From Phormidium tenue FACHB-886 (GTDB lineage: Bacteria > Cyanobacteriota > Cyanobacteriia > Elainellales > Elainellaceae), in NCBI RefSeq assembly GCF_014764505.1, contig NZ_JACXWX010000058.1, positions 1-32,724 of the forward strand: 32,724 nt of DNA, written 5' to 3'. Shown here piece by piece: positions 11,000 through 25,843 of the stretch (position 1 is the stretch's first letter; the number at the start of each line of letters is the position of its first letter). The position numbers and the translations under genes were made by a program. Below the pieces are notes generated by a model, which saw only the letters and a list, made by a program, of their open reading frames with translations, did no database searches and had not been told where the DNA came from.

Positions 11000-11260
11000 C
11001 TAAAAGCGAGTGCAAAATTGACGGGTGTGTAGCACTGCTTCACCATGTTCGGGAATCCACGCTGCCCACTGATCCTCTGATACCTGACAAAGTAGCAGTG
11101 CTTCGTCAAAACTAAAGGTGCTGGGAAGTTCCAAAAGGTGTACCCAAGTATCAGCCTGGAACGCCTGCTGCGACGATTTGAGGTGAGACTGGTTTGACGA
11201 CTCCAGATTCTACTTTTGAGGTCGAACACCGAAATCTTGTATGCAGGAATTAAGTTTCAT
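11000..11260 (-). pseudogene. Small gene interrupted by one in-frame TAG
   Basis: The frame from ATG 11258-11260 to TAG 11000-11002 encodes 86 codons with one internal TAG at 11210-11212 (codon 17). The downstream part looks like real protein: TWVHLLELPSTFSFDEALLL, then CQVSEDQWAAWIPEHGEAVL. No other frame here looks coding. The first codons (ACGATGAAACTT) copy the start of the SDR gene at 10549, so the 5' end may be a duplicated SDR start fused to an unrelated small gene. The downstream part may begin at a non-ATG codon instead. Family not recognised. Confidence 0.5.
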
Positions 11261-11388
11261 CGTTTTGTTTTCCTTCCTGATAGACAACACAATCAAGGCT
11301 GGCTCATCTCTAGCAAACAGCCTTATTCAAATCTTTAATACAGCTATAGATAGGGGGAAATCTTTCCTGTCTGCGATCCCCTTCTTAG

Positions 11389-11952
11389 TTACTGAATCCG
11401 TTTCTTTCGCGGTACTCCGAAGCCCGGGTAGTGGGGCAACAGTTCTGCCGTTTCTTCTGGAGTCAGCATCTTGACTCCGTACTTGGCAGCTAGCGCGATG
11501 GCGGGGACTGGATCGGAAAGCGCGTATGTGGTTGCGCTCGCAGGTAGTTCCATGCTGGTGGACGGACTCGACATCGCTTCAAAGTACCCGTCCAGACCGT
11601 GTCCGTCCGGACCACCCGGTTGCAACAGGGCGAGAAACCGGAGGGTAGGCGACAGGTAGTAGAACGCGTGCGCCTGGTTCCGGGGGAGGAAGATCGTTTC
11701 GCCTGCTCGCACTGTTCGGACTTCGCCCATGCAGTACACCTCCAGTTCGCCTTCTAGAATGTAATACACCTCATCCTGGTCATAGTGGAGATGGGGCGGC
11801 GGCTCATTTCCCGGTTTCATCCGCAGCTCCAGAAGAACAAAGCGGTTTTCGGTCTCGACCGATGTCACAAGAAAAGACATGAGACTGCCCATGTAGGACC
11901 GGGTGGTCTCCCTGACCGCGCTACGAACGAAGAAATCTGCTGACTGTTTCAT
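11389..11952 (-). CDS. Cupin-domain protein (quercetin dioxygenase-like)
   Basis: The 187-residue product has a single cupin barrel. The first motif is PGNEPPPHLHYDQDEVYYIL with HxH and the following Glu (two His and one Glu as metal ligands). The second motif is GETIFLPRNQAHAF with the fourth ligand His. An extended C-terminus (DGYFEAMSSPS and PEETAELLPHYPGFGVPRKK) is typical of the quercetin 2,3-dioxygenase/AraC-neighbour cupins that follow this arrangement. It could be a metal-dependent dioxygenase or isomerase; the substrate is unknown. The ATG at 11950-11952 fits the family better than an upstream start at 12021. Codon use looks more GC-rich than in neighbours, a hint of transfer. It is the first gene below AraC copy 2 and its operator-like repeat. 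Confidence 0.85.
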   Translation of the reverse strand: MKQSADFFVRSAVRETTRSYMGSLMSFLVTSVETENRFVLLELRMKPGNEPPPHLHYDQDEVYYILEGELEVYCMGEVRTVRAGETIFLPRNQAHAFYYLSPTLRFLALLQPGGPDGHGLDGYFEAMSSPSTSMELPASATTYALSDPVPAIALAAKYGVKMLTPEETAELLPHYPGFGVPRKKRIQ

Positions 11953-12128
11953 GATTTGATCTCTGATATTAATGTGAACGTCGTATTCACAATTGGTTTT
12001 GAGGTGATTTAAGTCTTGCAACTCAGTCGTTGCAATTGTTTATATAAATTCAATAGATGTATGAGAACAAGTTATGTATTGCTCTGTGCGGAGAAGTTTG
12101 TATGGGATTCTCCTGATTCTTTACACCT

Positions 12129-12191
12129 AAAGTGTACTCAGTTCCAATACTCAACTTCTTTCGGGTTCTTACAATGATTTGTTAGATTCTT
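12129..12191. promoter_or_regulatory. Phased direct-repeat site, copy 2 (candidate AraC operator)
   Basis: TTCTT cores at 12156, 12166 and 12187 reproduce the 10/21-bp spacing of copy 1 exactly, with matching context (ACTTCTTTC, GGGTTCTTAC, AGATTCTTAT) and an AGTGTA block on the target side. It lies between AraC copy 2 and the cupin gene, so it is a candidate activator site for the cupin unit. Confidence 0.6.
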
Positions 12192-12197
12192 ATGAGG

Positions 12198-13085
12198 TTA
12201 GCGAACTTGCTTGGGTGTCAATCCGGTAATTCGCTTGAAGTGTTGTGTTAAGTGGCTTTGGCTGGAGAAACCCACTTGTAAGGCAATGTCTGCAATCGCC
12301 AAATTCGTTTTCGACAGCATCACTTTTGCCCGTTCCACTCGCTGTCGAATCACATACTGATATGGGGAAATCCCCGTAGCTTGTTTGAACAAATTAGCAA
12401 AGTAAGTGGGGCTAATATTGATGACGCTTGCCAGTTCAGCTAATGACAAATCTCGATCGAGGTGAGTGTGAATATAATCGATCGCTTGCTGCAATTGGGT
12501 ACGAGTTAAGCTTCTGTTCCCCGATGTAATGACTTGTACAACCTCAGAGTAATGTCGTAGCAGATGAATCACTAAAACTTGAGACAATGATTCAATATAT
12601 AATCGCCCCATCAGACCGTCTGAACGCAATTCAGCTAAAAGCAGCATGGCGACATGCTGAAGATTCGAGTCCTGCTTACCGAAACGATTCACAAAGTTGA
12701 GCCGCTTTATATCCATTTCGGAAGCCTCAGCGACTTGTCCGATCGCCTCTGACGGTAAGTGAATGTTCAGCATTGAACGACAGGTATCAGTTCTGTGGCA
12801 GTGCCAGTAGCTCGGTTGTCCTGCCGGAATAAAAATGGTGTCCCCCTTTTGAATTGTTGATTCATGCAGGCGATCGTCACGCTTCTGAGTCAAAGGAGCG
12901 GGTTGTCCTAGGTGTAGGATAAACCAATGATCGGATAGGGCAGGAAGCTCAAATTCACTTGAAGTTGGAGCATATTGATACTGTTCAACTAAGACACCAT
13001 TCCAGCCCATCTGCCGACTAGATAATATTGGAGATGTATGCAAGCGTCGGCTGAGGTCGAGTGGATTAATCAGGTTGCTAGTCAT
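12198..13085 (-). CDS. AraC-family transcriptional regulator (copy 2)
   Basis: The 295-residue protein is a close paralogue of the AraC at 8538-9419. They share SSRQMGWNGVLVEQ near the N-terminus, DDRLHES and GDTIFIPAGQPSYWHC in the cupin-like sensor domain, and a nearly identical C-terminal double HTH (LAELASVINISPTYFANLF and GFSSQSHLTQHFKR). Differences cluster in the sensor half, which suggests a changed ligand with a conserved DNA site. A third copy of the operator-like repeat lies just upstream of its ATG (13083-13085), so autoregulation or regulation by a lost third AraC is likely. Downstream, on the same strand, come the cupin, a broken gene, an unknown gene and an SDR. Confidence 0.92.
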   Translation of the reverse strand: MTSNLINPLDLSRRLHTSPILSSRQMGWNGVLVEQYQYAPTSSEFELPALSDHWFILHLGQPAPLTQKRDDRLHESTIQKGDTIFIPAGQPSYWHCHRTDTCRSMLNIHLPSEAIGQVAEASEMDIKRLNFVNRFGKQDSNLQHVAMLLLAELRSDGLMGRLYIESLSQVLVIHLLRHYSEVVQVITSGNRSLTRTQLQQAIDYIHTHLDRDLSLAELASVINISPTYFANLFKQATGISPYQYVIRQRVERAKVMLSKTNLAIADIALQVGFSSQSHLTQHFKRITGLTPKQVR

Positions 13086-13098
13086 AAATCTTTACTCA

Positions 13099-13160
13099 AA
13101 GTGTATAAAGTTTGAATGCTTGACTTCTTTCGGATTCTTACGACGATTTATCAGATTCTT
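13099..13160. promoter_or_regulatory. Phased direct-repeat site, copy 3 (candidate AraC operator)
   Basis: TTCTT cores at 13125, 13135 and 13156 again show the 10/21-bp phasing (ACTTCTTTC, GGATTCTTAC, AGATTCTTAT), with AGTGTA near 13100. This copy ends less than 20 bp from the AraC copy 2 start codon, so a promoter overlapping it would directly drive that gene. Confidence 0.6.
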
Positions 13161-13166
13161 ATGGTG

Positions 13167-13192
13167 TTAACGAATTTGCTTGGGTGTCATTC
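13167..13192 (-). pseudogene. Last codons of a third AraC gene
   Basis: Next to repeat copy 3 the minus strand reads GMTPKQIR and TAA. This matches the ends of the two intact AraC proteins (GMTPRQVR and GLTPKQVR). Homology stops after eight codons. Together with the adjacent repeat this shows a third araC unit, deleted except for its 3' end. Confidence 0.7.
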
Positions 13193-13292
13193 CCTATCTC
13201 GCTCAGAGATTGGGCAACGAAAGAAACAACTGCCGATAAGAGGCTTCAGAGAATCTTTGCGAATTCGCTAAAACCTCTTGGAAACGAGAGAA

Positions 13293-14009
13293 CTACGAAA
13301 GATAAAGGCTCCAATTTTGTTGAGCGGTTTCAGGATCGGCTGCAACGTGTTCGGCACAGTTGAGACGAAGATGACGATCGCCAAAGGCTGCATTGACCAA
13401 CGCACAATGATGGGGGCGTTCCGAATCTGGATACCGATTGGGCTGAAAGAATTGACAAGTGACACACATTTTTGCCACTGAAACTTGTCCTTGTTCCTGA
13501 AGCTTGCGAATCATCTTAATCAGCCCTCGCAGGAAGATGACTTGCTCCTCCTCCGATAGTTCATCTACTGTATTCAGCAGAAAATTAGACCAGGATGTGG
13601 TTTGGGCGGCGGCTTGTTGTCCTTGAGTGGTCAATGTAATCGCGATCGCTCGTCCATCGGCTGGCGATCGCGTTTTCTGCACTAACCCTTTCTCGACTAG
13701 CGAAGTGACCGCATCACTTGCCGTCGCCGCCGTGACTGCCAAATTTTTTGACACTTCCGTCAACCGCATCCCAGCGTTGCCCTTGTCAATCAGCAGCGCC
13801 AGAATTTGCCCTTGAGTCGGCGTTAACCCTTGCTGCCCGGCATCCTGCCAAGACTGACTTTTCAGCGCTAGCCCAATTTTCTCCAGACCAATCAAGATGT
13901 GTTGCTCGATCGCAGTTGAGGCATCAAAGGGATTAGCGATGACACCCGCATTTGGCTGTTCGGCGGGAAGGGCTGATTCTGTGTTGCGATCGGGCTGAGA
14001 GTTATTCAT
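13293..14009 (-). CDS. MarR-family regulator with Cys-rich C-terminal extension
   Basis: The 238-residue protein has a poorly conserved N-terminus, then a MarR domain at about residues 35-170: LTPTQGQILALLIDKGNAGM, MRLTEVSKNLAVTAATASDA as the HTH and KTRSPADGRAIAITLTTQG as the wing. A C-terminal extension reads MCVTCQFFQPNRYPDSERPH and HCALVNAAFGDRHLRLNCAE. Its spacing C-x2-C-x16-C-x15-C, with several His, suggests a zinc or iron-sulphur/redox site. Related MarR proteins with this tail occur in other bacteria, but I know of no defined signal. ATG 14007-14009 is preferred to an in-frame GTG at 14030. It lies downstream of, and on the same strand as, the globin-to-Tpx operon, about 160 bp after it. 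Confidence 0.88.
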   Translation of the reverse strand: MNNSQPDRNTESALPAEQPNAGVIANPFDASTAIEQHILIGLEKIGLALKSQSWQDAGQQGLTPTQGQILALLIDKGNAGMRLTEVSKNLAVTAATASDAVTSLVEKGLVQKTRSPADGRAIAITLTTQGQQAAAQTTSWSNFLLNTVDELSEEEQVIFLRGLIKMIRKLQEQGQVSVAKMCVTCQFFQPNRYPDSERPHHCALVNAAFGDRHLRLNCAEHVAADPETAQQNWSLYLS

Positions 14010-14166
14010 GGTACTGACGGTGTAAGGCACTGAATCAGTGAGAGCGGCTGCAAGCGCAGCTACGAGTCATTTCTTCCTGAATTATGGCTGTACTGTGGTT
14101 GAGCAGGAGTAGTAACGATCCTACAACGATAGCCACTTCTAGCGCAGTAGGACACAAATTCTCGAT

Positions 14167-14703
14167 TTACGATGCCGCTTTCAATGTGGCGATTTCTGCG
14201 GAAAGCACTGCAAAAGCAACGCCATAGTCAGGTTCAGTCGTCAGTTCAGCAACAATTTCTTGATAGGTAACGATGCCTGTAGAATCTACGACATAAACAG
14301 CGCGTGCCAGTAATCCTAGATCCTGAATGAGCAGTCCCCAACTGCGGGCAAAGTCCAGATCGCGATAATCTGAAAGCATGGTGATACTGGTAACTTTCTC
14401 GATCGCCTGCCAACGAGTTTGAGCAAAAGGAAGGTCGGCGGAGATGAGAAAAACTTCAACAAAATCAGTTAATTCCTGACCCAGTAGAGTTAGACGTTGG
14501 CTGAACTTGCGGATCTCAGCACTACAGACTGGCATATCTAAAGAAGGAATCGTGAGTAACAGACGGACTTTTCCTCGCGATCGCGCCAGTGGCAGCACGG
14601 GTAACAGGTTATTATCAATCACCCGCACATCACGGGCACGAGTGCCAACTTTCATCGGCAATCCAATCAATCGCATCGGTTGCCCATGAAAGGTTACTTG
14701 CAT
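14167..14703 (-). CDS. tpx: Thiol peroxidase (Tpx-type peroxiredoxin) lacking the resolving cysteine
   Basis: The 178-residue peroxiredoxin reduces hydroperoxides using a peroxidatic Cys. The active-site block TIPSLDMPVCSAEIRKF holds Cys60, and FLISADLPFAQTRW, ARAVYVVDSTG and ELTTEPDYGVAFAVL are Tpx-family landmarks. In E. coli Tpx the resolving Cys follows DLPFAQSRF (RFCGAEG). Here the equivalent is RWQAIEK, so the resolving Cys is replaced and Cys60 is the only Cys in the protein. It would have to use a partner thiol. The ATG at 14701-14703 overlaps the end of the upstream TlpA-like thioredoxin gene by 10 bp, so that protein is the obvious candidate partner. Last gene of the globin operon. 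Confidence 0.88.
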   Translation of the reverse strand: MQVTFHGQPMRLIGLPMKVGTRARDVRVIDNNLLPVLPLARSRGKVRLLLTIPSLDMPVCSAEIRKFSQRLTLLGQELTDFVEVFLISADLPFAQTRWQAIEKVTSITMLSDYRDLDFARSWGLLIQDLGLLARAVYVVDSTGIVTYQEIVAELTTEPDYGVAFAVLSAEIATLKAAS

Positions 14704-15329
14704 AGTTCCTGGGTTACTCGATTGCCAGTGTTGATGTATTTCTCGATTCGTTGAATCACATCTGCTTCCGGCGTATGTCCAAACCATCCTTCTAATAATT
14801 CTAAGTTTTGATCGACTAGAAGAAAGGTCGGTGTTCCTGGCAGATGATTCAGCGTAAAGGTTGCTGATGTTTGAGTGCTCTTTTGTAAGTAAGTCTTCAC
14901 TTTCTGACGCAACGCTTCTTGTTCGAGATGGGATGAATTACCGAAACCAGCGATCGCTTCACACACCCGCTCGATGTTCGCGGGGGTTGCAAGTGCCGTA
15001 CCTGTAGTAAATTGATCGATCGCAACGGGAAAATCAATTGCTTGAGCGTAATTCTCTCCGAGGGCTTGCCGAGTTGCCCCAACCATCTGTTTCTGAGTCA
15101 AAAGTAACTCTGTATTTGCAGCCGTGTTGTACTCAAAATCCTCAAACGCTGTTGAGAGTCCCAGAACATTTAACCCAGATTCACGGTACTTCCAATACAA
15201 CTTGTTGACGAGTGGAAACCCATAAATGAAACAACCGGGACAATTGACTTGAAACACGAACAAAAGGTTTAGCGCTTTGAGGTCAAATGAACCTTGTAAA
15301 ACGCGATCGATCTTGAGTTGGATTGCCAT
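14694..15329 (-). CDS. TlpA/AhpC-TSA-like thioredoxin-fold protein
   Basis: The 211-residue cytoplasmic protein (no signal peptide) has a thioredoxin fold with the redox motif CPGC in LFVFQVNCPGCFIYGFPLV (about residues 29-32 of the mature start). A long insert of about 100 residues follows, then the cis-Pro segment LPGTPTFLLVDQNLELLEGW. This is the layout of TlpA-like or redoxin-like proteins with an extended helical middle. It probably reduces or exchanges disulphides, possibly recycling the one-Cys Tpx encoded next. GGAG lies seven bases before ATG 15327-15329. The start of the frame at 15365 has no such site. It follows the Rof-like gene by four bases and overlaps tpx by ten, so translation is likely coupled. 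Confidence 0.82.
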   Translation of the reverse strand: MAIQLKIDRVLQGSFDLKALNLLFVFQVNCPGCFIYGFPLVNKLYWKYRESGLNVLGLSTAFEDFEYNTAANTELLLTQKQMVGATRQALGENYAQAIDFPVAIDQFTTGTALATPANIERVCEAIAGFGNSSHLEQEALRQKVKTYLQKSTQTSATFTLNHLPGTPTFLLVDQNLELLEGWFGHTPEADVIQRIEKYINTGNRVTQELCK

Positions 15330-15333
15330 TGTG

Positions 15334-15579
15334 CTACTCCTGAGCAAAACGAGTCGGGTTACCATTGACTGAGATCAGGCGATCGAGCCGGATTTCAGTC
15401 CCATCTTTGAGCTTCAAAAAATCTGCTTTGTTGGCAGCATAGACATCGACAATCTGACTTTGAACTTCAATAATTTCCTCAGTAGCAGTGCGATAGGAAA
15501 TCTGACAGGTTTGCCGTAGCGTTGCCAAGGCTTCTAGCTGATCGTGAAAACCACAGTCCACTAAACAATAGTCATTCAT
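15334..15579 (-). CDS. Rof-like (Rho-binding antiterminator-like) small protein
   Basis: The 81-residue product matches the Rof/YaeO family pattern: MNDYCLVDCGFHDQLEALAT at the start, LRQTCQISY, then VYAANKADFLKLKDGTEIRL and DRLISVNG at the end. In E. coli Rof binds the transcription terminator Rho and blocks it. Most cyanobacteria lack Rho, so the role here must differ or the family is broader than its name. The fold is a small SH3/Sm-like beta barrel that could bind RNA or protein. GAGG lies six bases before the ATG (15577-15579). It sits one base after the preceding gene and four before the thioredoxin gene, inside the globin operon. Confidence 0.75.
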   Translation of the reverse strand: MNDYCLVDCGFHDQLEALATLRQTCQISYRTATEEIIEVQSQIVDVYAANKADFLKLKDGTEIRLDRLISVNGNPTRFAQE

Positions 15580-15580
15580 C

Positions 15581-15829
15581 TTAAACCTCACTATTTTTCC
15601 AATAATTGTTAGCAGCAGCAATTGTGGCAAGCTCAGTAGCAACTGTTTGTCCTACGGCAATTAACATCATGGCATCATTGCCATAGACATCTCGTAGCTG
15701 TTTGCGCTTCTCTTCATCACGTTGAGTCAGCTTGATAATCAGCCGTGCCAGTTTCACGGCTAATTGCCGTCCTTCCTCAGGTATTTCGGTGATTAACGAG
15801 TTGTTAGGAACTAGTGCAATCATATCCAT
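15581..15829 (-). CDS. Small protein of unknown function (82 aa)
   Basis: The product reads MDMIALVPNNSLITEIPEEG, then RQLAVKLARLIIKLTQRDEE and a helical, Ala-rich end. It is largely alpha-helical by composition and lacks cysteines, signal peptide or membrane segment. No family recognised. The ATG at 15827-15829 is chosen; the frame is open to 15895 but has no ribosome site there. It lies 75 bp after the MOSC gene and one base before the Rof-like gene, so it is a member of the operon. Confidence 0.6.
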   Translation of the reverse strand: MDMIALVPNNSLITEIPEEGRQLAVKLARLIIKLTQRDEEKRKQLRDVYGNDAMMLIAVGQTVATELATIAAANNYWKNSEV

Positions 15830-15903
15830 TGTTTGTTCTCTTGTTAGTTGTAAGGACGATCGCCGATTGGATTTCTTTTGCAATCGTCCTAGCACGATCA
15901 GGC

Positions 15904-16608
15904 TCAGTTCTCACCCCAGAGCCGGGGAACCGGATCTGGATTGACATTTTTAGCAGCTCGCTTGGACAAAGTGCGTTGCCAATTTACCGCCAACAACGGA
16001 CAGTTTGCCAATGCAGCCGACGCTTCCCTATCATTTAATTCGTGATGCATGATTTGGTTGGCTCGGGCGATCGTCCATTGGGGAAACGGGCGATCGCGCA
16101 ACACCAGTTTCATTCCCGCTTCCACCAGTCCTTCTTTCAATACGCGAAAATACCATCCGGTCTGCCCAGTCGTCTGAACTTGAAATGCAAGATCCCGAAT
16201 TCCCCAGCGACGCGATAGTTTCCAGCAAGGCTGGCGGGGTTGAGACACCTGAACTTGAGCTTCACCGATGTCATAGATATCGCCAATGCAAACGGATGAT
16301 TCTGTTTGATCAGCAACCGTAAAGTTTTCTCCAAACGCTCCGTAGGAGAGGTCGGGCAACTTCAAACGCGCTTGCCAGGAGGGGTAGTGTTCAGCCGCAT
16401 ACGCCAGTACCGCTTTTTCTACACCGCCATGACGTTTGAGATCGGCTTGACCATCCCCAGCTAAATTAGTGCTTCCGAGCCAGGCTTCTCCCTGAATCGG
16501 CTCCTTGAAGAAACCTGTAGACCAAGGACGATCCATTGGGGCTGGCGCACCTGTCACACCAAGCGATTTGGGCAGTCCAACTTGAATCGAAAGAATTTGG
16601 GCAACCAT
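15904..16608 (-). CDS. MOSC-domain protein (YiiM-like)
   Basis: The 234-residue protein has a MOSC beta-barrel: an N-terminal strand segment VAQILSIQVGLPKSL, NLAGDGQADLKRHGGVEKAV at about residues 48-67, FGENFTV, GDIYDIGEAQVQVSQPRQPC with the conserved Cys, WKLSRRWG and TGQTGWYFRVL. A C-terminal helical 3-alpha extension follows (WTIARANQIMHH). YiiM-type proteins use molybdenum cofactor or its sulphur and are linked to resistance to N-hydroxylated base analogues. Here it probably handles a Mo-cofactor-dependent reduction. It is the second gene of the globin operon, 39 bp after globin, on the same strand. Confidence 0.9.
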   Translation of the reverse strand: MVAQILSIQVGLPKSLGVTGAPAPMDRPWSTGFFKEPIQGEAWLGSTNLAGDGQADLKRHGGVEKAVLAYAAEHYPSWQARLKLPDLSYGAFGENFTVADQTESSVCIGDIYDIGEAQVQVSQPRQPCWKLSRRWGIRDLAFQVQTTGQTGWYFRVLKEGLVEAGMKLVLRDRPFPQWTIARANQIMHHELNDREASAALANCPLLAVNWQRTLSKRAAKNVNPDPVPRLWGEN

Positions 16609-16647
16609 TTATCCCTCTGGGTAAAACACAAACAAAATGTAATCCAC

Positions 16648-17103
16648 TCATGCAGTTGCTCCTGAAGAGCTAGATTGTAGTTTGAGTGCTGCAGGGGTAT
16701 AGTCAGCACCTTCCAGCATGATTTGAGCGATCGCGTCGTAAGCATCTGCCCAGGCTTGTTTCGTTTGGGGTGTCCAGGCAGTTCCTACAAAAGATGCCAG
16801 CGTTTTCAACAAGGTGTTGCCAACCATTGGATAATGCTCCGGCAAAACGCCATACTGAACATGGCGTGTGCCTAAACCTGTCAGAGCGGCATTTAACGCG
16901 TCAGGTTGGCGAAGGCTATTAACCACCAGTACCAGCGAAGCAAATAGCTTCTTACCCTGCTCCTCCATTGAGGTGTGAACGAACAGTGGTTTCGTCTCTG
17001 GATAGTCTGCGAACAGATAGGAATAGAACAAAGCGGTGAAGTCAGATTCACGCGCCTTCACTTGCTCAAAGCTTTGTTCCAGTAGTTCAATGTTCAGTGC
17101 CAT
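16648..17103 (-). CDS. Single-domain globin (flavohaemoglobin-type haem domain)
   Basis: The 151-residue globin lacks the FAD/NAD reductase part of flavohaemoglobin. Features are the A-helix start MALNIELLEQSFEQVKARES, CD region YPETKPLFVHTSM, Gln49 at the likely distal E7 site (MEEQGKKLF), His81 as the likely proximal F8 ligand in TRHVQYGV, LPEHYPMVGNTLLKTL, and a WTPQTKQAWADAYD end. Such globins bind oxygen or nitric oxide and, with a reductase, can detoxify NO. It is the first gene of a minus-strand operon and has a strong promoter upstream (17182-17225) and AAGGAG before the ATG. A paralogous N-terminus survives in front of the DUF4331 gene. Confidence 0.92.
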   Translation of the reverse strand: MALNIELLEQSFEQVKARESDFTALFYSYLFADYPETKPLFVHTSMEEQGKKLFASLVLVVNSLRQPDALNAALTGLGTRHVQYGVLPEHYPMVGNTLLKTLASFVGTAWTPQTKQAWADAYDAIAQIMLEGADYTPAALKLQSSSSGATA

Positions 17104-17181
17104 TGTTGTGAGTTTACTCCTTCCTCTGAGTTGTCAGGATTGACACACCAGGCGGCAATCCCTGTGCTAACATCTAAGTTG

Positions 17182-17225
17182 TTTAGGACTCCTAAATAAT
17201 AAAACGATAGTTGCCTAACTGTCAA
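17182..17225 (-). promoter_or_regulatory. Promoter and overlapping palindromic operator of the globin operon
   Basis: Reading the minus strand, TTGACA (17220-17225) is followed after 18 bp by TATTAT (17196-17201). The perfect palindrome TTTAGGA-C-TCCTAAA (17182-17196) begins at the last base of the -10 box and covers the expected start site. A repressor bound there would block transcription. Candidate repressors in the neighbourhood are the Cys-rich MarR (13.3 kb) and the divergent XRE-cupin protein. Confidence 0.7.
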
Positions 17226-17392
17226 TGTGTTTTTCCATTAAAGCTAGGTTTCAGCTTTGAGATTCAACTGACCAAAGCTGGTGAATTAAGGAGAATTGGC
17301 TATTTTAGGCAGTAAACATCATTTTCACAGTGCCCATCTACTACCAGATCGATTGAGAAGAATCCAGCAAGCTTGCCTGCTAGGCAATATAA

Positions 17393-17410
17393 TTAAGCTA
17401 ACTTGCTTAA
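17393..17410. promoter_or_regulatory. Inverted repeat before the XRE-cupin gene
   Basis: TTAAGC at 17393-17398 and GCTTAA at 17405-17410 form a 6-6-6 inverted repeat that ends ten bases before the ATG. GCCTGCTAGGC at 17375-17385 is another dyad close by. XRE regulators often bind such dyads to control themselves. The position could also affect translation. Confidence 0.4.
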
Positions 17411-17420
17411 TGAGCAATTT

Positions 17421-18059
17421 ATGGAAAATTCGATCGAGGCTCTACTCAAGCCTGAATTAGCCAAACTGGGGCAACGGTTACGGGCTTTAAGAACGGAACG
17501 GGGTTGGACGTTAAGTCAACTGAGTGAGCAGGCAGATGTGTCTGAGGCTTACTTGTCTCGCCTAGAAGGTGGCGAACGGCAGCCCTCACTGGCAGTTCTG
17601 TTTACCTTGGCACGGGTGTATGGGGTATCGCTACCCGACCTATTTGGCTCAACTTCGGAGAACCCAAAGCCAACGGTTCCAAAGCAGCAAGCTTCTGCTG
17701 GGGTTGTGATTCGTGCAGGCGATCGTCGGCTTCAAGAGGGCAATGGGCTATTCTACACCTCTCTAGCTGGCGGGAATCATCTAGCTGATTTGCATCCACT
17801 CCGAGTGATCGTGCCTGTGAATCGACAAGGAGAACAGCATTATCAGCATAGTGGTGAAGAGTGGCTCTATGTTCTCTCCGGGCAACTCATTCTGACTCTA
17901 GCAGACGAGCAGTTTTTGCTCAATCCTGGTGACGCGGCACATTTTGATGCGTTTCTCCCCCACAATCTCTCTGCGATCGGAGACCAAGATGCTGAGATTC
18001 TTCTCGTTGCCTGTACGCCCACACGCTCTTTATTGAAAAGTTACCTCTCTGAAAAATAA
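17421..18059 (+). CDS. XRE-family regulator with C-terminal cupin
   Basis: The 212-residue protein has an XRE helix-turn-helix at about residues 15-70 (LGQRLRALRTERGWTLSQLS, then ADVSEAYLSRLEGGERQPSL) and a cupin sensor domain at about 120-205. The latter shows HYQHSGEEWLYVLSGQLILT with HxH-like and Glu positions, and NPGDAAHFDAFLPHNL as the second motif. This domain order is typical of regulators of amine, sulphur or polyamine metabolism. The ATG at 17421 is preferred over a TTG at 17403 in the same frame. It is divergent from the globin operon with 317 bp between them, and followed by the broken amidotransferase gene, either of which could be its target. Confidence 0.9.
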   Translation: MENSIEALLKPELAKLGQRLRALRTERGWTLSQLSEQADVSEAYLSRLEGGERQPSLAVLFTLARVYGVSLPDLFGSTSENPKPTVPKQQASAGVVIRAGDRRLQEGNGLFYTSLAGGNHLADLHPLRVIVPVNRQGEQHYQHSGEEWLYVLSGQLILTLADEQFLLNPGDAAHFDAFLPHNLSAIGDQDAEILLVACTPTRSLLKSYLSEK

Positions 18060-18164
18060 TGCCTTTATCTTAGAGAGCCTCCCCATGTCTGAATTCCTAA
18101 ACTGATGGTGCTACCTGAAGCTCACCTTGTCTAATCAAACTTAAACCAACGCGAGGGTGAAAAA

Positions 18165-18935
18165 ATGAGAGTTCATTATTTGCAACATGTTCCCTTCGAG
18201 GGACTGGGCAGTATTTCAACCTGGGTGGACGAACAAAACCATTCGTTATCATCCACCAAATTCTACGCCAACGATCCCTTACCAACGGTGAGTGATTTTG
18301 ATTAGCTGATCGTCTTGGGTGGATCAATGAATATCTATGAAGAGGAGCAGTACCCCTGGCTCATCGCAGAGAAACAACTCATCAAACAGGCGATCGAGGA
18401 AGACAAGATAGTGCTTGGCATTTGTCTGGGAGCGCAACTGATCGCGGATGCTCTGGGTTCAAAAGTGTATGCGGGGCAGCACAAAGAGATCGGATGGTTT
18501 CTGATCAAAACAACAGAAGCAGTTCAGCAATCCGATGCCCTTGAGTCTTTACCCACTCAACTGACAGTTTTCCATTGGCATGGAGATACATTTGAGTTAC
18601 CAGAAAAAGCAACCCACCTGACCTACAGCGAGGGTTGCCTCAATCAAGCATTTCTCTAGGGTGAAAAGGTGCTTGGCTTGCAATTTCACCTAGAAATGAA
18701 TCGACACGGTATACAGCAGATCATTGAAAACGATGCCTCGGAATTAATTCCAGGGAAGTACATTCAGACTTCTGAGAAAATGCTTTCTGAGAATAAGAAT
18801 TTTGCAGAAATTCGTGAGGTCATGTACCAGTTTTTCGAACTGCTCTCACATCAACACCAAAAAGCTTCCCAGCCTGTTTGGGTTACTGGAATGTTATTTG
18901 TTTTAGATTCATGTGAATCAAATGATTTGACGTAA
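18165..18935 (+). pseudogene. Type 1 glutamine amidotransferase, interrupted by two TAG codons
   Basis: One continuous frame of 257 codons has TAG at 18303-18305 and 18657-18659 but no frameshift. It reads MRVHYLQHVPFEGLGSISTW, then (after the first TAG) LIVLGGSMNIYEEEQYPWL, LGICLGAQLIADALGSKVYA (nucleophile Cys in GICLGAQ) and VFHWHGDTFELP. After the second TAG come VLGLQFHLEMN (catalytic His and Glu) and a C-terminal helix. These are all the landmarks of a class I glutamine amidotransferase of the GuaA-like/YfeJ type, which moves ammonia from glutamine. The first TAG most likely replaces a Trp (FDW). Unless TAG is read through, no full-length product is made. It follows the XRE gene by 105 bp on the same strand. 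Confidence 0.85.
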
Positions 18936-18973
18936 TTAGCAAATGGATAGCGTAAATCTCTGATTACACACCA

Positions 18974-19087
18974 ATATCAAATCCGGTTAATTCCCGATTA
19001 TGGGGGAGGTGTGGAGGCTTCGCCTCCACGAAGGGGACTTGCCCCCTTCATCCCTTTTTATCACGGTTATTCAGGCGGATTTGATAT
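18974..19087. repeat. 114-bp palindromic repeat element with nested hairpin
   Basis: Perfect 12-bp inverted ends ATATCAAATCCG (18974-18985) and CGGATTTGATAT (19076-19087) enclose a perfect 8-bp hairpin, GTGGAGGC-TTC-GCCTCCAC (19011-19029), and a second G/C-rich stem (AAGGGG/CCCCTT, near 19031-19048). No coding frame is inside. The structure is that of a non-autonomous MITE- or REP-like intergenic element of cyanobacteria. It lies between the amidotransferase relic and the ISAzo13 relic. Confidence 0.75.
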
Positions 19088-19092
19088 AAGTA

Positions 19093-20450
19093 AGGGCTTA
19101 TAAATAAATAAGTTCATGCTTTTTCAAGGATTGGAGTGCGAGGATGGATTATATAGTTCCACTGCGGACAAATCTTGCGTCTAGTCAGGTTCAATGCTGC
19201 CATTTCCTCGTCAGAAACTTTGACTTTAGTCGGGTAATCTCCTTTCAGTTGAGCAGCTTTGACACTTAATCCCGTTTGGGTCTTGGTGCCTCGAATCAAA
19301 GCAGTCATCCGGTTGAGAGAACGCAACGGTTTGCCAGCCCAATTGAGGCAAATAAAGCTGAACAAGCGATATTCAATCGGATTCCACTTGGAAGCACCCG
19401 ATGGATAATGGCAAACCATCACCTTAATGCCATAACGGTCAGCTAATTGCTGTTGCAATTGATGGTTCCAGTTACGAACCCGCTAACCGTTGCTGCCTTC
19501 TGAATCACACAAGATCAGCAGTTTACGTTCATCGGCAAAACCAGGACGGTCTTTGCGCTCAAACCATCGCTCGATCGCATCCACGGCAAAGGCTGCTGTA
19601 TCACTAGAAGTCCCAACATAGACAAAACTTTGATTGTGCACTAGGTCATATATGCCATAGGGAACTGCTTTAGCAATGGCATCTTCTGGAAATTCGTGGT
19701 CATTGACCGCATCTACTTCCACCCTCCAAGTTTGTCCGGCATTTTTGAAGTTTCCAATCAGTTCCTTCTTCTGGGTATCAACACTGACCACCCGATGCCC
19801 TGCTTGGATAAACCGTCGCTTGACTCGCTCAATGTATCGCAATTGCCTATCCCGTTGGAGATGCTGAGTCGTTGCTACCGCTCTACGATTTGCTTTGAGC
19901 GAGTAGTTCTGCTGTTTGAGCAACCGTTGAATACTGCTATGACTGAGAAACACTCCCACACCCACGAGCTTTGCTTTGATGCCACGCAGACTTTGACGAA
20001 TCCATTTACTGGCACCACATGGGTCTCCTGCAGTATCTGCTTCTCCAACGACTTGCAGGATTGCCTCGACTCCTGCTAGTTTTTTCGACTTGTTTGCGCC
20101 CGCCTCCAGCTACTCGTATCCGCGCTACTGGACGGTTCGCTAGTCCTGCATCGAGTTCTCGTCGTCCCCGTCGAATCGTATTGATATCTAACCCAGCGAT
20201 GTCACTCACCTGTTGGCTTTCCCCATGTCCCACCCGTTTCGCTTCCAACGCTGCCAGCCATCGTCGTTGCTATTCATCTAAACGGCTCATCAGCAGGTTC
20301 AACGGTTCATGCTGCTATTGAATCATTTCATTGCCGTTCTGACACGCTTGACATTGACGAATGGCTCGGCTCTTCATCTTTATATTTTGATTCCGATACT
20401 TCCCTCCCTAAACTAGCTTAAAACCATGAAATTGTTTTCTTACAAACCCT
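19093..20450 (-). mobile_element. ISAzo13-family insertion sequence, decayed
   Basis: The element carries the transposase pseudogene described below. Imperfect inverted ends are visible: the left end at 19093-19112 and the reverse complement of 20431-20450 agree at about 14 of 20 positions, both starting AGGG. The right boundary falls exactly where histidine-kinase coding sequence resumes (codon TAT at 20450-20452), so the element, or a deletion next to it, removed the 5' part of that kinase gene. I see no clear target duplication. Confidence 0.65.
19114..20377 (-). pseudogene. ISAzo13-family transposase with three TAG codons and one frameshift
   Basis: The frame starts MKSRAIRQCQACQNGNEMIQ, with a CxxC near the N-terminus. 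TAG codons are at 20315-20317 and 20270-20272. A helix-turn-helix part follows (LEAKRVGHGESQQVSDIAGL, RRGRRELDAG), then GGGRKQVEK and a frameshift at an A6 run (T6 at 20080-20085 on the plus strand). The next part contains HRVVSVDTQKKELIGNFKNA (first Asp), LLILCDSEGSNG (second Asp), TAG at 19483-19485 and HYPSGASKWNPIEYRLFSF (catalytic Glu), ending PQWNYIIHPRTP. All DDE residues are still readable, so decay is recent. The order and motifs match ISAzo13 transposases of about 400-420 residues. Confidence 0.88.
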
Positions 20451-20758
20451 ATCCTCTATCCTCTGATCTGGAAAATAATCTGTTTCGGATTGGGCAAGAA
20501 GCTTTGACAAATGCCATCAAATATGCGGAGGCGCATGAAATCCGCATTGAACTGATCTATGAACCAACCCAATGCAGCTTGCAAATTAAAGACGATGGGT
20601 AGGGATTTGAGGTAGACAACCAGGCGATGCGGAACGGCTTTGGTCTACTGGGGATGGCACAACGGGCTGAACGCATTAGCGCTGAATTAAAGATTCAAAG
20701 CCACTTAGGGCAGGGAACAGCAATCACGTTGTCCATTAGTCGCGGTAACTCAGCATGA
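20450..20758 (+). pseudogene. C-terminal ATPase part of a NarL-type histidine kinase, with one TAG
   Basis: Starting at the IS boundary, the frame encodes the HATPase domain of a two-component kinase: LFRIGQEALTNAIKYAEAHE (N box), LQIKDDG-TAG-GFEV (G1 box; TAG at 20600-20602), NGFGLLGMAQRAERI (G2 region) and GQGTAITLSI. It is paralogous to the end of the kinase at 22384-25173, where the equivalent reads KDDGRGFGV. The sensor and the His-containing dimerisation domain are missing. Its stop TGA overlaps the ATG of the response regulator gene (ATGA), a typical kinase-regulator arrangement, so the regulator has lost its cognate kinase. Confidence 0.85.
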
Positions 20759-21384
20759 GTCAACTCAGTCGCATCCGCGTTCTTGTGGTGGACGATCATC
20801 CCGTTGTCCGCCAGGGTTTGGTCGGAATGCTGGAGAAGGCGCCAGATATTGTGATCGTGGGTCAAGGGCGAGATGGGCATGAGGCGATCGCAGTGTTTCA
20901 GCAACAGCAGCCTGATGTGACTTTGATGGATTTACGGATGCCTGGGATGGGAGGTGTTCAAGCGATTACGGTGATTTGCAATGAGTTTCCCAGCACTCAA
21001 ATTGTTGTGCTGACCACATATGACACCGATGAAGAAATTTATCGAGGATTGCGAGCCGGGGCAAAGGGATATTTACTGAAGGATTCTGAGCCAGAGGAAC
21101 TATTGCCAGCAATCCGAACAGTGACCAAGGGACAACAGTATATTCCCTCTAACGTGGCTGCTAAGTTAGTCCAGCGGATAACTGCTCCAGAACTGAGCGA
21201 TCGTGAGCTAGAAGTTCTCCAGTTAATCGGACAGGGCATGAGCAACCAGGAAATTAGCGCGGTTCTAATAATTAGTGAAAGTACGGTGAAAACCCATATC
21301 AACCGCATCTTAAGCAAGCTAGATGTCAAAGATCGCACCCAGGCAGCCATTGTTGCGTTGAAACGCGGAATTTCTAGCTTGTGA
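20755..21384 (+). CDS. NarL/FixJ-family response regulator (orphaned)
   Basis: The 209-residue regulator has a receiver domain with the acidic pair in VLVVDDHPVV, phospho-acceptor Asp59 in VTLMDLRMPG, Thr in VVLTTYDTDEE and Lys in YLLKDSEPEE. A LuxR-type HTH follows: LSDRELEVLQLIGQGMSNQE, then ISESTVKTHINRILSKLDV. It is closely similar to the regulator at 25197-25811. Its own kinase, overlapping by ATGA upstream, is only a relic, so it may now be driven by the intact neighbouring kinase or by small phosphodonors. Possible targets are itself and the DsbA-like gene beyond the palindromes at 21471-21547. Confidence 0.93.
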   Translation: MSQLSRIRVLVVDDHPVVRQGLVGMLEKAPDIVIVGQGRDGHEAIAVFQQQQPDVTLMDLRMPGMGGVQAITVICNEFPSTQIVVLTTYDTDEEIYRGLRAGAKGYLLKDSEPEELLPAIRTVTKGQQYIPSNVAAKLVQRITAPELSDRELEVLQLIGQGMSNQEISAVLIISESTVKTHINRILSKLDVKDRTQAAIVALKRGISSL

Positions 21385-21470
21385 GAGTAAAGATGGTACT
21401 TCTGCCTGGATTAACAATTATCACCAGACATCACTTGGGAGCGAAGGATTTTAGACTATGAGGCAGGCAA

Positions 21471-21547
21471 TCAAACCTAAGTTTGATCTAAACCCCAACT
21501 TAAGTTTGGTTCGTTTTACTCCCTCAAGTTGATCAAAATACAGACCT
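21471..21547. promoter_or_regulatory. Cluster of palindromes before the DsbA-like gene
   Basis: Within this 281-bp gap are TCAAAC-CTAA-GTTTGA (21471-21486), AACTTAAGTT (21497-21506) and TTGATCAA (about 21539-21546). The first two share an AAGTTTG core repeated 23 bp apart (21479 and 21502). Such clustered dyads between a NarL-type regulator and the next gene are candidate binding sites for that regulator. An AAGGA ribosome site for the next gene lies further on, near 21655. Confidence 0.5.
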
Positions 21548-21665
21548 TAAATTGACTACAATCCTAAATAAGCCTTGTACACTAAACCTATAGAAACGAT
21601 CATCGGGTTGAAGGGAAGAGATTTCAGAGTATACGCGACGGATCTCTTTTTCTCAAGGATTTAGA

Positions 21666-22271
21666 ATGAGCGACGTTATTTCTGACAACGCACTTGGCGA
21701 CCCTCGCGGTAACTGCGAAGCAGAGCGCAATCAATTAGTTATACCCCCTGCAGAGCAAGACCATCGGCAAGGCTCATTGAATGCTCGCGTTGTGCTGGTT
21801 GAGTATGGGGATTATCAGTGTCCTCAATGCGGTGAACTTTATACCTTAATTAAGGCAGTTCAACGCCAATTTGAAGCAACCTTGTTTGGGAGAAATTGTC
21901 TATGCTTTGTATTCCGGCATTTTCCTCAACCTCAAATTCATCCTCAAGCTCAGAAGGCAGCAGCAGCGACAGAAGCAGCAGCAGCACAAGGGCAGTTTTG
22001 GCAGATGCACGAGATGCTATTGAAGCATCATCAAGAGCTAGGAGATGGGTATTTCGTAGAATACGCTAGCAAGTTAGGGTTTGATGTGACTCAGTTTATT
22101 CGAGACATTGCTCGGAAAGTGTACGTCGATCACATCAATCAAGACATTGCCAGCGGAATGGATAGTGGGGTGGTTAGCACTCCAGCTTTATTTATCAATG
22201 GTGTGCGTTATATAGGTGCTTTAGAGCTTTAGCCACTACTCGCTGCGATCGCTGAAGCTTCTCATCGTTAG
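21666..22271 (+). CDS. DsbA-like thioredoxin-fold protein; TAG at 22230 shortens its C-terminus
   Basis: The product has a DsbA/thioredoxin fold with LVEYGDYQCPQCGELYTLIK (CPQC redox motif, about residues 49-52), FVFRHFPQPQIHPQAQKAA, an inserted helical domain with QGQFWQMHEMLLKHHQELG, and the cis-Pro loop VVSTPALFINGVRYIG. No signal peptide is seen, so it is probably cytoplasmic (the FrnE/DSBA-like subgroup). A first TAG at 22230-22232 ends a 188-residue form after GALEL. The same frame continues PLLAAIAEASHR to TAG at 22269-22271, which is just how these proteins normally end. The C-terminal helix was therefore lost by a GAG/TAG-type change, or TAG is read through. The shortened form may still fold. 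Confidence 0.82.
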
Positions 22272-22282
22272 TAGTTTCGTTA

Positions 22283-22336
22283 ATGAACCAACCTGGACAA
22301 GGCACAGAAATTGTTGTGATTGTGAATCAGGAGTAG
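22283..22336 (+). pseudogene. Last codons of another histidine kinase
   Basis: NQPGQGTEIVVIVNQE followed by TAG matches the final residues of the kinase at 22384-25173 (SQPGQGTEITVTINRE). Only this end of the HATPase domain (G3 region) remains. It shows that a third kinase gene once lay here. Confidence 0.7.
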
Positions 22337-22383
22337 GACATGGGTCAACGTGCGCGAACTGCCATCAATGAGGAACCTAATTG

Positions 22384-25173
22384 ATGAGCAGGCTCCTCAA
22401 GCAAGCTATAGCCCAAGTGTCCAGAACGGTGCCATTGCAGACGGTTTTGATTGTACCGTTTGTGCTGCAAACTTTAGTGACGGTCGGCTTAGTGGGGTAT
22501 TTTTCCTTCAAAAATAGACACGAAGCCATCAACGATCTCGCCAGTCAACTGCGGCGAGAACTGACGAACCGGATCGAAGGCAAACTACAAACCTATACCG
22601 AGATACCTCATAACATCAATCGGCTCAATGCCAGCACCTTCGCTCAAGGAAAAATTGACCCTAGCGCAGTGAAAGGTGAGTTTCCACTCTGGCAGCAAAT
22701 TCAGATTTATCCAATGGTAAGTGATATCTACTGTGGCGATCGCAAAGGTTCTCTTCTAGGGGTGCGACGTAGCCCTGCCGATCGCTCTATTGAACTGCGG
22801 TCAAGTAATGTTGCTACAGATCATAAACTCTACGGCTACAGCCTTGATCACAATGGTCAGCGAGACCAGCTAGTCAGTCAAGGCAACAAACTCTTTGATG
22901 CGCGGGCTCGTCCCTGGTATAAAGCAGCAGTGATAGCAGGCGAACCCGTCTGGAGTGAAATCTATGCTGACTTTGCGAGCCAGTTACCAACTATCACCGC
23001 CAGTACGCCTGTCTATAGCACTGCCGATCGATCGCTGCTAGGGGTCTGCGCTACCGATGTATTTCTGCCTAATGAGATGAGTCGTTTTTTGGCTAGCCTG
23101 CAAATTGGCAAGACGGGCATTGCCTTTATTCTAGAGCGATCGGGGCAACTGGTTGCCACCTCCACCGGAGAGGCGGTTATCAGTAGTGGGGCGGCGGCGA
23201 ATCGATTGTCCGCAGTTGAGAGCCGTAACCCTACCGTGAGAGCTACTGCTGCCTATTTGCGCGATCATTTCAGCGATCTGCGGCAGATCCAGACTGCGGA
23301 ACAGCTTGATTTTAATTTGGATGGCAGGCGGCAGTTGGTTCAGGTGATGCCCTTCAAAGATACTCGTGGACTAGACTGGCTAATTGTCACAGTGTTGCCT
23401 GAATCTGATTTCATGTCAAAGATTAATCAGAGCATTCACGCAACTATCCTGCTTTGTATTGCGGCTTTGCTGCTTGGCATTGTTATTTGCGTTTTGATTG
23501 CCCGATGGATCACTAAACCAATTGTCAGCGTCAGTCAATCGGCAAAAGCGCTGGCAGATGGTGCATGGGATCAGACGGTAGAAGTTGAGCGATCGGGCGA
23601 TTTGGGTGAACTGGCTCGAGCATTCAATCAGATGGCACAGCAGCTTCAAATCGCATTTGCCAAAATGCAGTCTTTAAACCAGACTCTTGCCCAAAGTGAA
23701 ACCCGCCTCCAGAAATTTTTAGAGTCGGTTCCGATAGGAATTGCAATTCTGGACGCAGCAGGTCACCCTTATTACGCAAACCGAAAGGCAATCCAACTTC
23801 TAGGCAAGGACGTGCTGCCGTTTGTCAACCCAGAGCAAATTGCCCAAGCCTATCAACTCTATATGGCAGGAACCGATCGTCCCTACCCAACTGAACAACT
23901 GATGATTGTGCGAGCGCTAAACGGCGAACAGGGCAGTGTGGATGATATCGAAATTCACCAGGGGAATCGTATCATTCCGATCGAAAGTTGGGGAACCCCA
24001 ATTTTTGATGAGTTTGGAAGCATCCTGTATGCGATCGCAGTTTTTCAAGACATCACCGAACGTAAACAAGCAGAGAAACTGCTAGCCGACTACAACCGAA
24101 CCTTAGAGCAACAAGTCACCGAGCGGACGCTGCTGCTTTCTGAGGAGATTGAAGAACGACAACGAGTTGAAACCGCCCTGCGACAAAGTGAGGAGCAACG
24201 CAGGCTGACAATGGACTTCACTCACATCGGTAGTTGGAACTGGAATATTGTGGAGGATACAACAGAGTGGAATGATAATCACGCTCGACTGCTGGGGTTA
24301 GTTCCTGATGAGGTTGAGAGTAGCTATCGGGCATGGCGCGATCGAGTTCATCCAGAAGATATTGAGCGAGTCGAGCAAGCGGTGGCGGTAGCGCTAGCAA
24401 CCCATACCGATTTTGAAGCTGAATATCGAGTGATTTATCCAGATAGTAGTATTCACTGGCTCGTTGGCAAAGGTCGAGGCATTTATAACGAAGCTGGACA
24501 GCCTGTGCGAATGTTAGGGGTGATTCTTGATATCAGCGATCGTAAACGAGCAGAACACACTTCTATCTTGGAAGAGCGCAACCGGATGGCGCGAGAAATT
24601 CATGATACACTCGCTCAATCTTTTACAGGCATTCTGCTTCAAGTTGGAGCAGCAACACAAGTGTTAGTGGACGAGCCGGAAGCAATTCAGATATATCTAG
24701 AAATGATTGATGAACTGGCGCGCACTGGGCTAGCAGAGGCACGGCGATCCGTAGCAGCACTCCGTCCGCAGCTATTAGAAGAGGGCAATTTAGAAAGTGC
24801 TCTGCACCGCCTTGTGACTCAGATGAGATCGACGATCGACACTGTTCTGATTTACGAGACACAAGGTACAGCCTATCCTTTACCAGCGGATGTAGAGAAC
24901 AACTTACTCCGAATTGGGCAGGAAGCATTAACCAATGCAATCAAATACGCCTATGCTGGCGAAATTCGGGTTGAGTTAGTGTACAGCCAGACACAGTGCA
25001 TCTTACGAGTTAAAGATGATGGACGGGGCTTTGGAGTGGGTAGCGCTCCATTAAGCAATGGTTTTGGTTTATTAGGAATGAGCGAACGGGCAGAGCGCAT
25101 CAATGCCCAGCTAGCGATTCAAAGTCAACCGGGACAGGGAACAGAAATTACTGTCACTATCAACCGAGAGTGA
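22384..25173 (+). CDS. Membrane-bound multi-PAS histidine kinase (NarL type)
   Basis: The 929-residue sensor kinase has a transmembrane helix at about residues 22-42 (IVPFVLQTLVTVGLVGYFSF) and a large extracytoplasmic Cache-type sensor up to about 350 (RARPWYKAA, VYSTADRSLLGVCATDV). A second transmembrane helix follows (LLCIAALLLGIVICVLIARW), then HAMP (TKPIVSVSQSAKALADG...) and two PAS domains. PAS 1 is at about 440-560 (FLESVPIGIAILDAAGHPYY). PAS 2 is at about 605-725 (THIGSWNWNIVEDTTEWND, HPEDIERVEQ, GVILDISDRKRAE). HisKA_3 has the phospho-acceptor His740 in MAREIHDTLAQSF, and HATPase shows N, G1 (KDDGRGFG) and G2 (NGFGLLGM) boxes. It probably binds a small ligand outside the membrane and phosphorylates the regulator encoded 23 bp downstream. 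The ATG at 22384 follows a TTG codon in frame. Confidence 0.93.
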   Translation: MSRLLKQAIAQVSRTVPLQTVLIVPFVLQTLVTVGLVGYFSFKNRHEAINDLASQLRRELTNRIEGKLQTYTEIPHNINRLNASTFAQGKIDPSAVKGEFPLWQQIQIYPMVSDIYCGDRKGSLLGVRRSPADRSIELRSSNVATDHKLYGYSLDHNGQRDQLVSQGNKLFDARARPWYKAAVIAGEPVWSEIYADFASQLPTITASTPVYSTADRSLLGVCATDVFLPNEMSRFLASLQIGKTGIAFILERSGQLVATSTGEAVISSGAAANRLSAVESRNPTVRATAAYLRDHFSDLRQIQTAEQLDFNLDGRRQLVQVMPFKDTRGLDWLIVTVLPESDFMSKINQSIHATILLCIAALLLGIVICVLIARWITKPIVSVSQSAKALADGAWDQTVEVERSGDLGELARAFNQMAQQLQIAFAKMQSLNQTLAQSETRLQKFLESVPIGIAILDAAGHPYYANRKAIQLLGKDVLPFVNPEQIAQAYQLYMAGTDRPYPTEQLMIVRALNGEQGSVDDIEIHQGNRIIPIESWGTPIFDEFGSILYAIAVFQDITERKQAEKLLADYNRTLEQQVTERTLLLSEEIEERQRVETALRQSEEQRRLTMDFTHIGSWNWNIVEDTTEWNDNHARLLGLVPDEVESSYRAWRDRVHPEDIERVEQAVAVALATHTDFEAEYRVIYPDSSIHWLVGKGRGIYNEAGQPVRMLGVILDISDRKRAEHTSILEERNRMAREIHDTLAQSFTGILLQVGAATQVLVDEPEAIQIYLEMIDELARTGLAEARRSVAALRPQLLEEGNLESALHRLVTQMRSTIDTVLIYETQGTAYPLPADVENNLLRIGQEALTNAIKYAYAGEIRVELVYSQTQCILRVKDDGRGFGVGSAPLSNGFGLLGMSERAERINAQLAIQSQPGQGTEITVTINRE

Positions 25174-25196
25174 GAACTACAATCAGCCAATCTACT

Positions 25197-25811: not shown

Positions 25812-25813
25812 GT

Positions 25814-25843
25814 GGGAAAAGGGAAGGGATATCAGCTTTTCCC
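25814..25843 (+). terminator. Possible terminator after the response regulator
   Basis: GGGAAAAG (25814-25821) and CTTTTCCC (25836-25843) form a perfect 8-bp stem with a 14-base loop just after the stop codon. Only a short TTT follows, so termination strength is doubtful. Confidence 0.45.

What the first reader, a model, noticed from the sequence alone, without database searches (positions are those of the whole stretch)
11210..22232. Eight in-frame TAG codons, and no TAA or TGA, interrupt otherwise well-preserved reading frames
Seen in sequence: TAG at 11210 (small gene), 18303 and 18657 (amidotransferase), 19483, 20270 and 20315 (ISAzo13 transposase), 20600 (kinase fragment) and 22230 (DsbA-like). 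The amidotransferase, kinase fragment, small gene and DsbA-like frames contain no frameshift at all, which is odd for ordinary decay. Several TAGs sit where Gln, Trp or Glu is expected. Possible readings are recent nonsense decay with a biased spectrum, or partial amber suppression/read-through in this organism. Against recoding: TAG also ends intact genes here (both marR genes, the Rof-like gene, the flavoprotein, the exported hydrolase). Outside this stretch other stops do occur in relics (TGA in the 4.5-kb relic, TAA in the cupin relic).
Basis: partly seen in the sequence, partly recalled or inferred. Interest (0 to 1): 0.62.

Follow-up and report, generated by a model that had tools for sequence, protein, structure and literature searches.

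The report
Ordinary nonsense mutations in decaying genes
The in-frame TAG codons are ordinary nonsense mutations in spare or broken gene copies of a cyanobacterium that uses TAG as a normal stop signal, so nothing here suggests a changed genetic code.

Summary
The eight TAG triplets are real, but only six interrupt recognisable coding sequence. At those six the closest relatives carry codons one base from TAG: Trp TGG (18303), Tyr TAT/TAC (18657), Tyr TAC (19483), Gln CAG (20270, 20600), Glu GAG (22230). The TAGs at 11210 and 20315 lie in an unconserved leader and upstream of the likely transposase start. 'No frameshift' is only partly right: the amidotransferase has a 1-base insertion at its native stop, the kinase scrap has lost 1-2 bases at its end, the transposase has frame-changing indels. 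TAG ends 263 of 794 long ORFs in 1.95 Mb of this genome outside the window and ends the intact amidotransferase paralogue itself. A hand-cleaned census of internal stops outside the window gives 12 TAG, 10 TGA, 2 TAA. No tRNA(CUA) was found, in a scan that was not exhaustive; RF1 is present and open. Sequence behind TAG stops is as non-coding as behind TAA or TGA. Verdict: ordinary decay of redundant genes and IS debris; six of six TAG is a weak local excess (p = 0.06 against the census).

The parts
18165..18935 (+). Class-I glutamine amidotransferase pseudogene, TAG at 18303 (TGG in three other copies) and 18657 (TAT or TAC in two); 1-base insertion at 18880 at the native stop
   Evidence: Pfam GATase 1.2e-18; paralogue G000:C79, 92% protein identity, no internal stop
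19090..20378 (-). ISAzo13-type insertion sequence relic: TAG at 19483 (TAC in the closest copy) and 20270 (CAG in three copies), 1-base deletion at 20085 and further indels to about 19944
   Evidence: PF07592 2.9e-97; 81% DNA identity over 1277 aligned bases to a G009 copy, L157
20315..20317 (-). TAG upstream of the likely transposase start, probably not coding
   Evidence: equivalent triplet TCG, TAA or TTG in three relatives
20446..20754 (+). C-terminal scrap (about 100 aa) of a large histidine kinase, TAG at 20600 (CAG in C42 and in Nostoc p057_G), 1-2 bases lost at 20745-20746
   Evidence: HATPase_c 1.2e-12
20755..21384 (+). Intact response regulator between the relics, ends in TGA
21666..22268 (+). 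DsbA-like gene; TAG at 22230 stands at a GAG codon of three homologues and removes the last 13 residues including that one; the product may still work
   Evidence: Thioredoxin_4 2e-17
11003..11260 (-). Second copy of a small conserved cyanobacterial gene, TAG at 11210 in its unconserved leader; the collinear G017 block lacks this 5' part

Best explanation
These are independent nonsense mutations in redundant or already broken genes of an accessory region of a cyanobacterial genome. The amidotransferase, the kinase-regulator-DsbA block and the small gene have open homologues elsewhere in the same genome, and the transposase is insertion-sequence debris. Under relaxed selection, single-base stop mutations, indels and truncations accumulated. 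TAG is read as stop by RF1 in the normal way. Shown: open homologues, the relatives' codons, the indels, the stop usage. Inferred: that RF1 terminates at these particular codons and that selection was relaxed before the stops arose.
For: Six of six testable TAGs are one base from the codon of the closest relatives: W, Y, Y, Q, Q, E, by transitions and transversions. Open homologues in the same genome: C79 amidotransferase 92%, C42 kinase-regulator-DsbA block about 80% in DNA, C1 small gene 54%. Indels or truncation in three of the same relics. Cleaned census outside the window: 12 TAG, 10 TGA, 2 TAA. TAG is the native stop of 263 of 794 ORFs of 250 aa or more, of 5 of 28 hand-picked window ORFs, of C79 and of the C1 small gene. 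RF1 521 bits, cut-off 423, no stop inside. 42 tRNA hits, none CUA. Another in-frame stop within 10 codons: TAG 113 of 262, TAA 124 of 308, TGA 93 of 222.
Against: Six of six TAG is somewhat more than expected (Fisher p = 0.057 against 12 of 24; pooled 18 of 30 against 42% p = 0.06), and no other verified internal stop was found in the window. In the cleaned census TAG is already half, and TAA is scarcer than the simple spectrum predicts (2 of 24, p = 0.005), which I do not explain. The amidotransferase keeps its frame to its native end, and its branch (12 nonsynonymous, 11 synonymous) is not significantly faster than those of the open copies (4:9, 14:22; p = 0.30), so any loss is recent. In more distant homologues the residue varies: R at 20270, H or S at 19483, T, G, N or A at 22230.
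Confidence: 0.94

Rival explanations
1. Amber suppression or reassignment: a tRNA with CUA anticodon inserts an amino acid at the TAGs, so the proteins are made whole.
For: Only TAG at the six testable sites; the amidotransferase is otherwise well preserved.
Against: No tRNA(CUA) among 42 Rfam hits, in two CUA-loop pattern scans of the assembly, or by ARAGORN on 1.98 Mb. Four residues (W, Y, Q, E) would be needed. TAG ends a third of the long ORFs sampled, with ordinary non-coding sequence behind it. PylS not over its cut-off. Caveats: 150 of 327 first-look tRNA candidates were scored, no tRNA-Ile(GAT) or tRNA-Val(TAC) was recovered, the first pattern's form catches 29 of 41 known tRNAs, and the second was not calibrated.
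Confidence: 0.015
2. A local mutational process that makes TAG in particular.
For: Six of six TAG in the stretch; p = 0.057 against the cleaned census.
Against: The changes are of different kinds (G to A, C to T twice, G to T, T or C to G, C to G), which no single process gives.
Confidence: 0.02
3. Sequencing or assembly errors in a draft contig.
For: Draft assembly of 255 contigs; no reads were available.
Against: The relics differ from relatives at about 7-19% of aligned sites and carry truncation and multi-base indels.
Confidence: 0.025

Closest known systems
Bacterial pseudogenes with single-base nonsense mutations
   Same: Stops one base from the codons of open relatives, in duplicated genes and insertion-sequence debris, together with indels and truncation.
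   Different: Only a short local run of one stop codon.
UAG reassignment or amber suppression (for example the TAG-containing ORFs of phage phAss-1, PMC10607447, seen as a listing with the start of its abstract)
   Same: In-frame TAG in recognisable genes.
   Different: No suppressor tRNA found, TAG widely used as a native stop, RF1 present, four different residues replaced.

Membership tests
Ordinary pseudogenes (nonsense decay) | open homologue exists | tested here: met
   C79, C42, C1 in the same genome, Nostoc p057_G
Ordinary pseudogenes (nonsense decay) | stops one base from the closest relatives' codon | tested here: met
   6 of 6 testable sites; 2 of the 8 sites not testable
Ordinary pseudogenes (nonsense decay) | other disabling lesions in the same relics | tested here: met
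   transposase, kinase scrap and amidotransferase end; none in the DsbA-like gene
UAG reassignment / amber suppression | tRNA with CUA anticodon | tested here: not met
   the scan is not exhaustive
UAG reassignment / amber suppression | TAG rare or absent as native stop | tested here: not met
   263 of 794
UAG reassignment / amber suppression | one consistent amino acid at the TAG sites | tested here: not met
   W, Y, Y, Q, Q, E
UAG reassignment / amber suppression | peptides spanning TAG | not testable with these tools
   no proteomics
Pyrrolysine decoding | PylS | tested here: not met
   best hit 29.1 bits, cut-off 178; the same search rings below cut-off in most of the 14 control genomes
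ISAzo13 insertion sequence family | DDE_Tnp_ISAZ013 domain | tested here: met
   PF07592 2.9e-97

The most novel reading that the evidence does not exclude
UAG is leaky enough in this cyanobacterium (through near-cognate tRNAs, not a dedicated suppressor) for the amidotransferase copy and the DsbA-like gene to yield a little full-length product, slowing their decay.
Probability: 0.02. Interest if true: 0.4.

Novelty: already known. Interest (0 to 1): 0.06.

Why it matters
It matters little in itself. It shows that a local run of TAG in relics is not evidence for recoding when TAG is both a common native stop and the likeliest nonsense product of the genome's codon usage. [quoted passage not shown]

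Tried and rejected
Suppressor tRNA: Rfam scan of the whole assembly, ARAGORN on the held loci, two CUA-loop patterns over the whole assembly (3 and 10 hits; the reversed-pattern controls gave 8 and 27); two of the first three hits lie inside known tRNA-Leu genes, the other eleven lie at no place of the tRNA list. ARAGORN also offered a tRNA-Ile(AAT) with a 2.7-kb intron over the tmRNA gene, which I take as spurious. Pyrrolysine: no PylS over cut-off. Different behaviour of sequence behind TAG stops: none. A segment-specific code: 5 of 28 ORFs that I picked by hand as likely genes of the window end in TAG.

The census went through three stages, told here in full. Raw: 57 internal stops, 23 TGA, 19 TAG, 15 TAA, window included. 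After dropping 16 stops from three query ORFs by codon usage: 35 outside the window (17 TGA, 13 TAG, 5 TAA) and 6 inside (4 TAG, 1 TAA, 1 TGA). Left: 24 outside (12 TAG, 10 TGA, 2 TAA) and 4 inside, all TAG. This last step was by hand and one of the 24 (L198 17865, in a TPR gene) is doubtful.

I first took the TGA stops listed for G017 as decay of the same gene; one search shows that the C102 one is a native stop and that the C28 copy is frameshifted and runs into unrelated sequence, so they are not used. A plasmid search with the G009 transposase gave 164 records, all below 60% identity. Paper searches.

Full report
Observation. All eight TAG triplets exist at the stated places. Homology sorts them. 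The amidotransferase (18165-18935) has an open paralogue on contig C79 of the same genome (92% protein identity, no internal stop) and another full-length relative in G017:C102. That contig has the same length, 190,837 bases, as JACJOC010000084.1 of Cyanobacteria bacterium FACHB-471, so I take G017 to be that strain. At 18303 the three other copies aligned have TGG; at 18657 two have TAT or TAC, and the third, a truncated copy, is no longer homologous there. The kinase-regulator-DsbA block matches a block on contig C42 and, more closely, plasmid p057_G of Nostoc sp. C057. At 20600 both have CAG, and three more distant kinases have CAA and one CAG. At 22230 the plasmid and two further homologues, C204 and G006, have GAG; over 21 distinct homologues the residue is E in 10, T in 8 (C42 among them) and G, N or A in one each (my count). 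The transposase matches an ISAzo13-type copy in G009 at 81% DNA identity: 19483 is TAC there, 20270 is CAG there and in two contig-end fragments of the own genome, while more distant transposases have Arg; 20315 is TCG, TAA or TTG and probably not coding. The TAG at 11210 is residue 17 of a small gene whose 40 other listed matches all start at residue 19 or later.

Frames. The claim that four genes contain no frameshift is right for the DsbA-like gene and not testable in the small gene's leader. The amidotransferase has a 1-base insertion at 18880, at its native stop, so its apparent C-terminus is not the original one. The kinase fragment is about the last 5% of a large kinase and has lost 1-2 bases at its end. 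The transposase has a 1-base deletion at 20085 and further indels.

Is TAG special in this genome? In 1.98 Mb of 8.93 Mb (116 stretches, window included), ORFs of 250 or more residues outside the window end in TAA 308, TAG 263, TGA 223 (ORFs chosen mechanically). From their codon usage, single-base nonsense mutations should be TAG 41-43%, TAA 33-37%, TGA 22-24%. A tblastn census gave 57 internal stops; after two rounds of dropping spurious queries (16 and 13 stops) there remain 24 outside the window, 12 TAG, 10 TGA, 2 TAA, and 4 inside, all TAG. In these 28 the residues aligned to TAG are Q 6, W 4, Y 3, H 1, C 1, K 1; to TGA W 5, R 3, L 2; to TAA L 1, Q 1, mostly single-base neighbours. The TAG share outside the window is what the spectrum predicts (p = 0.42), TGA is somewhat more (p = 0.048) and TAA less (p = 0.005).

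How unusual is the stretch? The census rule catches four of the six window TAGs; the other two (20270, 22230) were read by hand. Six of six against 12 of 24 gives p = 0.057, four of four p = 0.11, before allowing for the choice of codon and stretch. I regard this as a weak excess that needs no special cause.

Decoding machinery. RF1 is present and open (521 bits, cut-off 423). PylS is not present over its cut-off. Rfam found 42 tRNA hits; 40 have an ARAGORN anticodon and two I read by eye (Ala TGC on C144; a 3' piece with anticodon TCT on C201); none is CUA. Only 150 of 327 first-look candidates were scored and neither tRNA-Ile(GAT) nor tRNA-Val(TAC) came up, so the list is incomplete. Two patterns for a CUA loop followed by a T arm gave 3 and 10 hits over the assembly, against 8 and 27 for the reversed patterns, none at a tRNA with that anticodon; the form of the first catches 29 of 41 known tRNAs. 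ARAGORN on the 1.98 Mb found no CUA. Another in-frame stop follows within 10 codons in 113 of 262 TAG-ended, 124 of 308 TAA-ended and 93 of 222 TGA-ended ORFs; the mean coding score of the next 20 codons is -0.034, -0.035 and -0.025.

Rate test. On a three-way amidotransferase alignment the window branch has 12 nonsynonymous, 11 synonymous and 1 stop change (the second stop site could not be polarised); C79 has 4:9, G017 14:22. The difference is not significant (p = 0.30): if selection was lost, it was lost recently.

Conclusion. Ordinary nonsense decay of redundant genes and insertion-sequence debris. The caution against reading this as recoding is in print (PMC8629427, passages). PMC4989110 (passages) reviews natural UAG read-through of about 1e-4 to 7e-3, which would make only traces of full-length product.

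Noticed in passing
window 20069-20098 (-); G009:C13:98040-98070; G181:C19:10277-10307: In this ISAzo13-type subgroup the N-terminal frame of the G009 copy ends at A_AAA_AAC TAG with the catalytic domain in the -1 frame, which looks like a programmed -1 frameshift signal; the matched string in G181 has the same A_AAA_AAC TAG if read in the same frame, and the window copy has lost one A. 3 of 388 genomes, the own one included, matched the pattern. The passages read of PMC5009743 name IS1, IS3, IS5 and IS630 as frameshifting families; a search for ISAzo13 with frameshift listed one paper, on mycobacterial tRNA.
   Followed up: partly
   Followed up: partly
window 20446-25823 against Nostoc sp. 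C057 plasmid p057_G: The kinase-regulator-DsbA-kinase-regulator order is shared with a Nostoc plasmid at 86-89% identity in the matched pieces.
   Followed up: partly
G000:C201:231400-231473 and 295667-295723: tRNA-Arg(TCT) and a same-strand 3' tRNA piece with the same anticodon 64 kb away: possible attachment sites of an integrated element.
   Followed up: no
G000:C30:11014-11169 (L124): A tRNA-Asp(GTC) and an odd tRNA-Glu(CTC) side by side, the second not among the Rfam hits; could come from a phage or plasmid.
   Followed up: no
own genome, 19 matches: The DsbA-like gene belongs to a large family in this genome, several members beside kinase-regulator pairs.
   Followed up: no
cleaned census: TAA is scarce among internal stops of relics (2 of 24) although codon usage predicts about a third; unexplained, small sample.
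   Followed up: no
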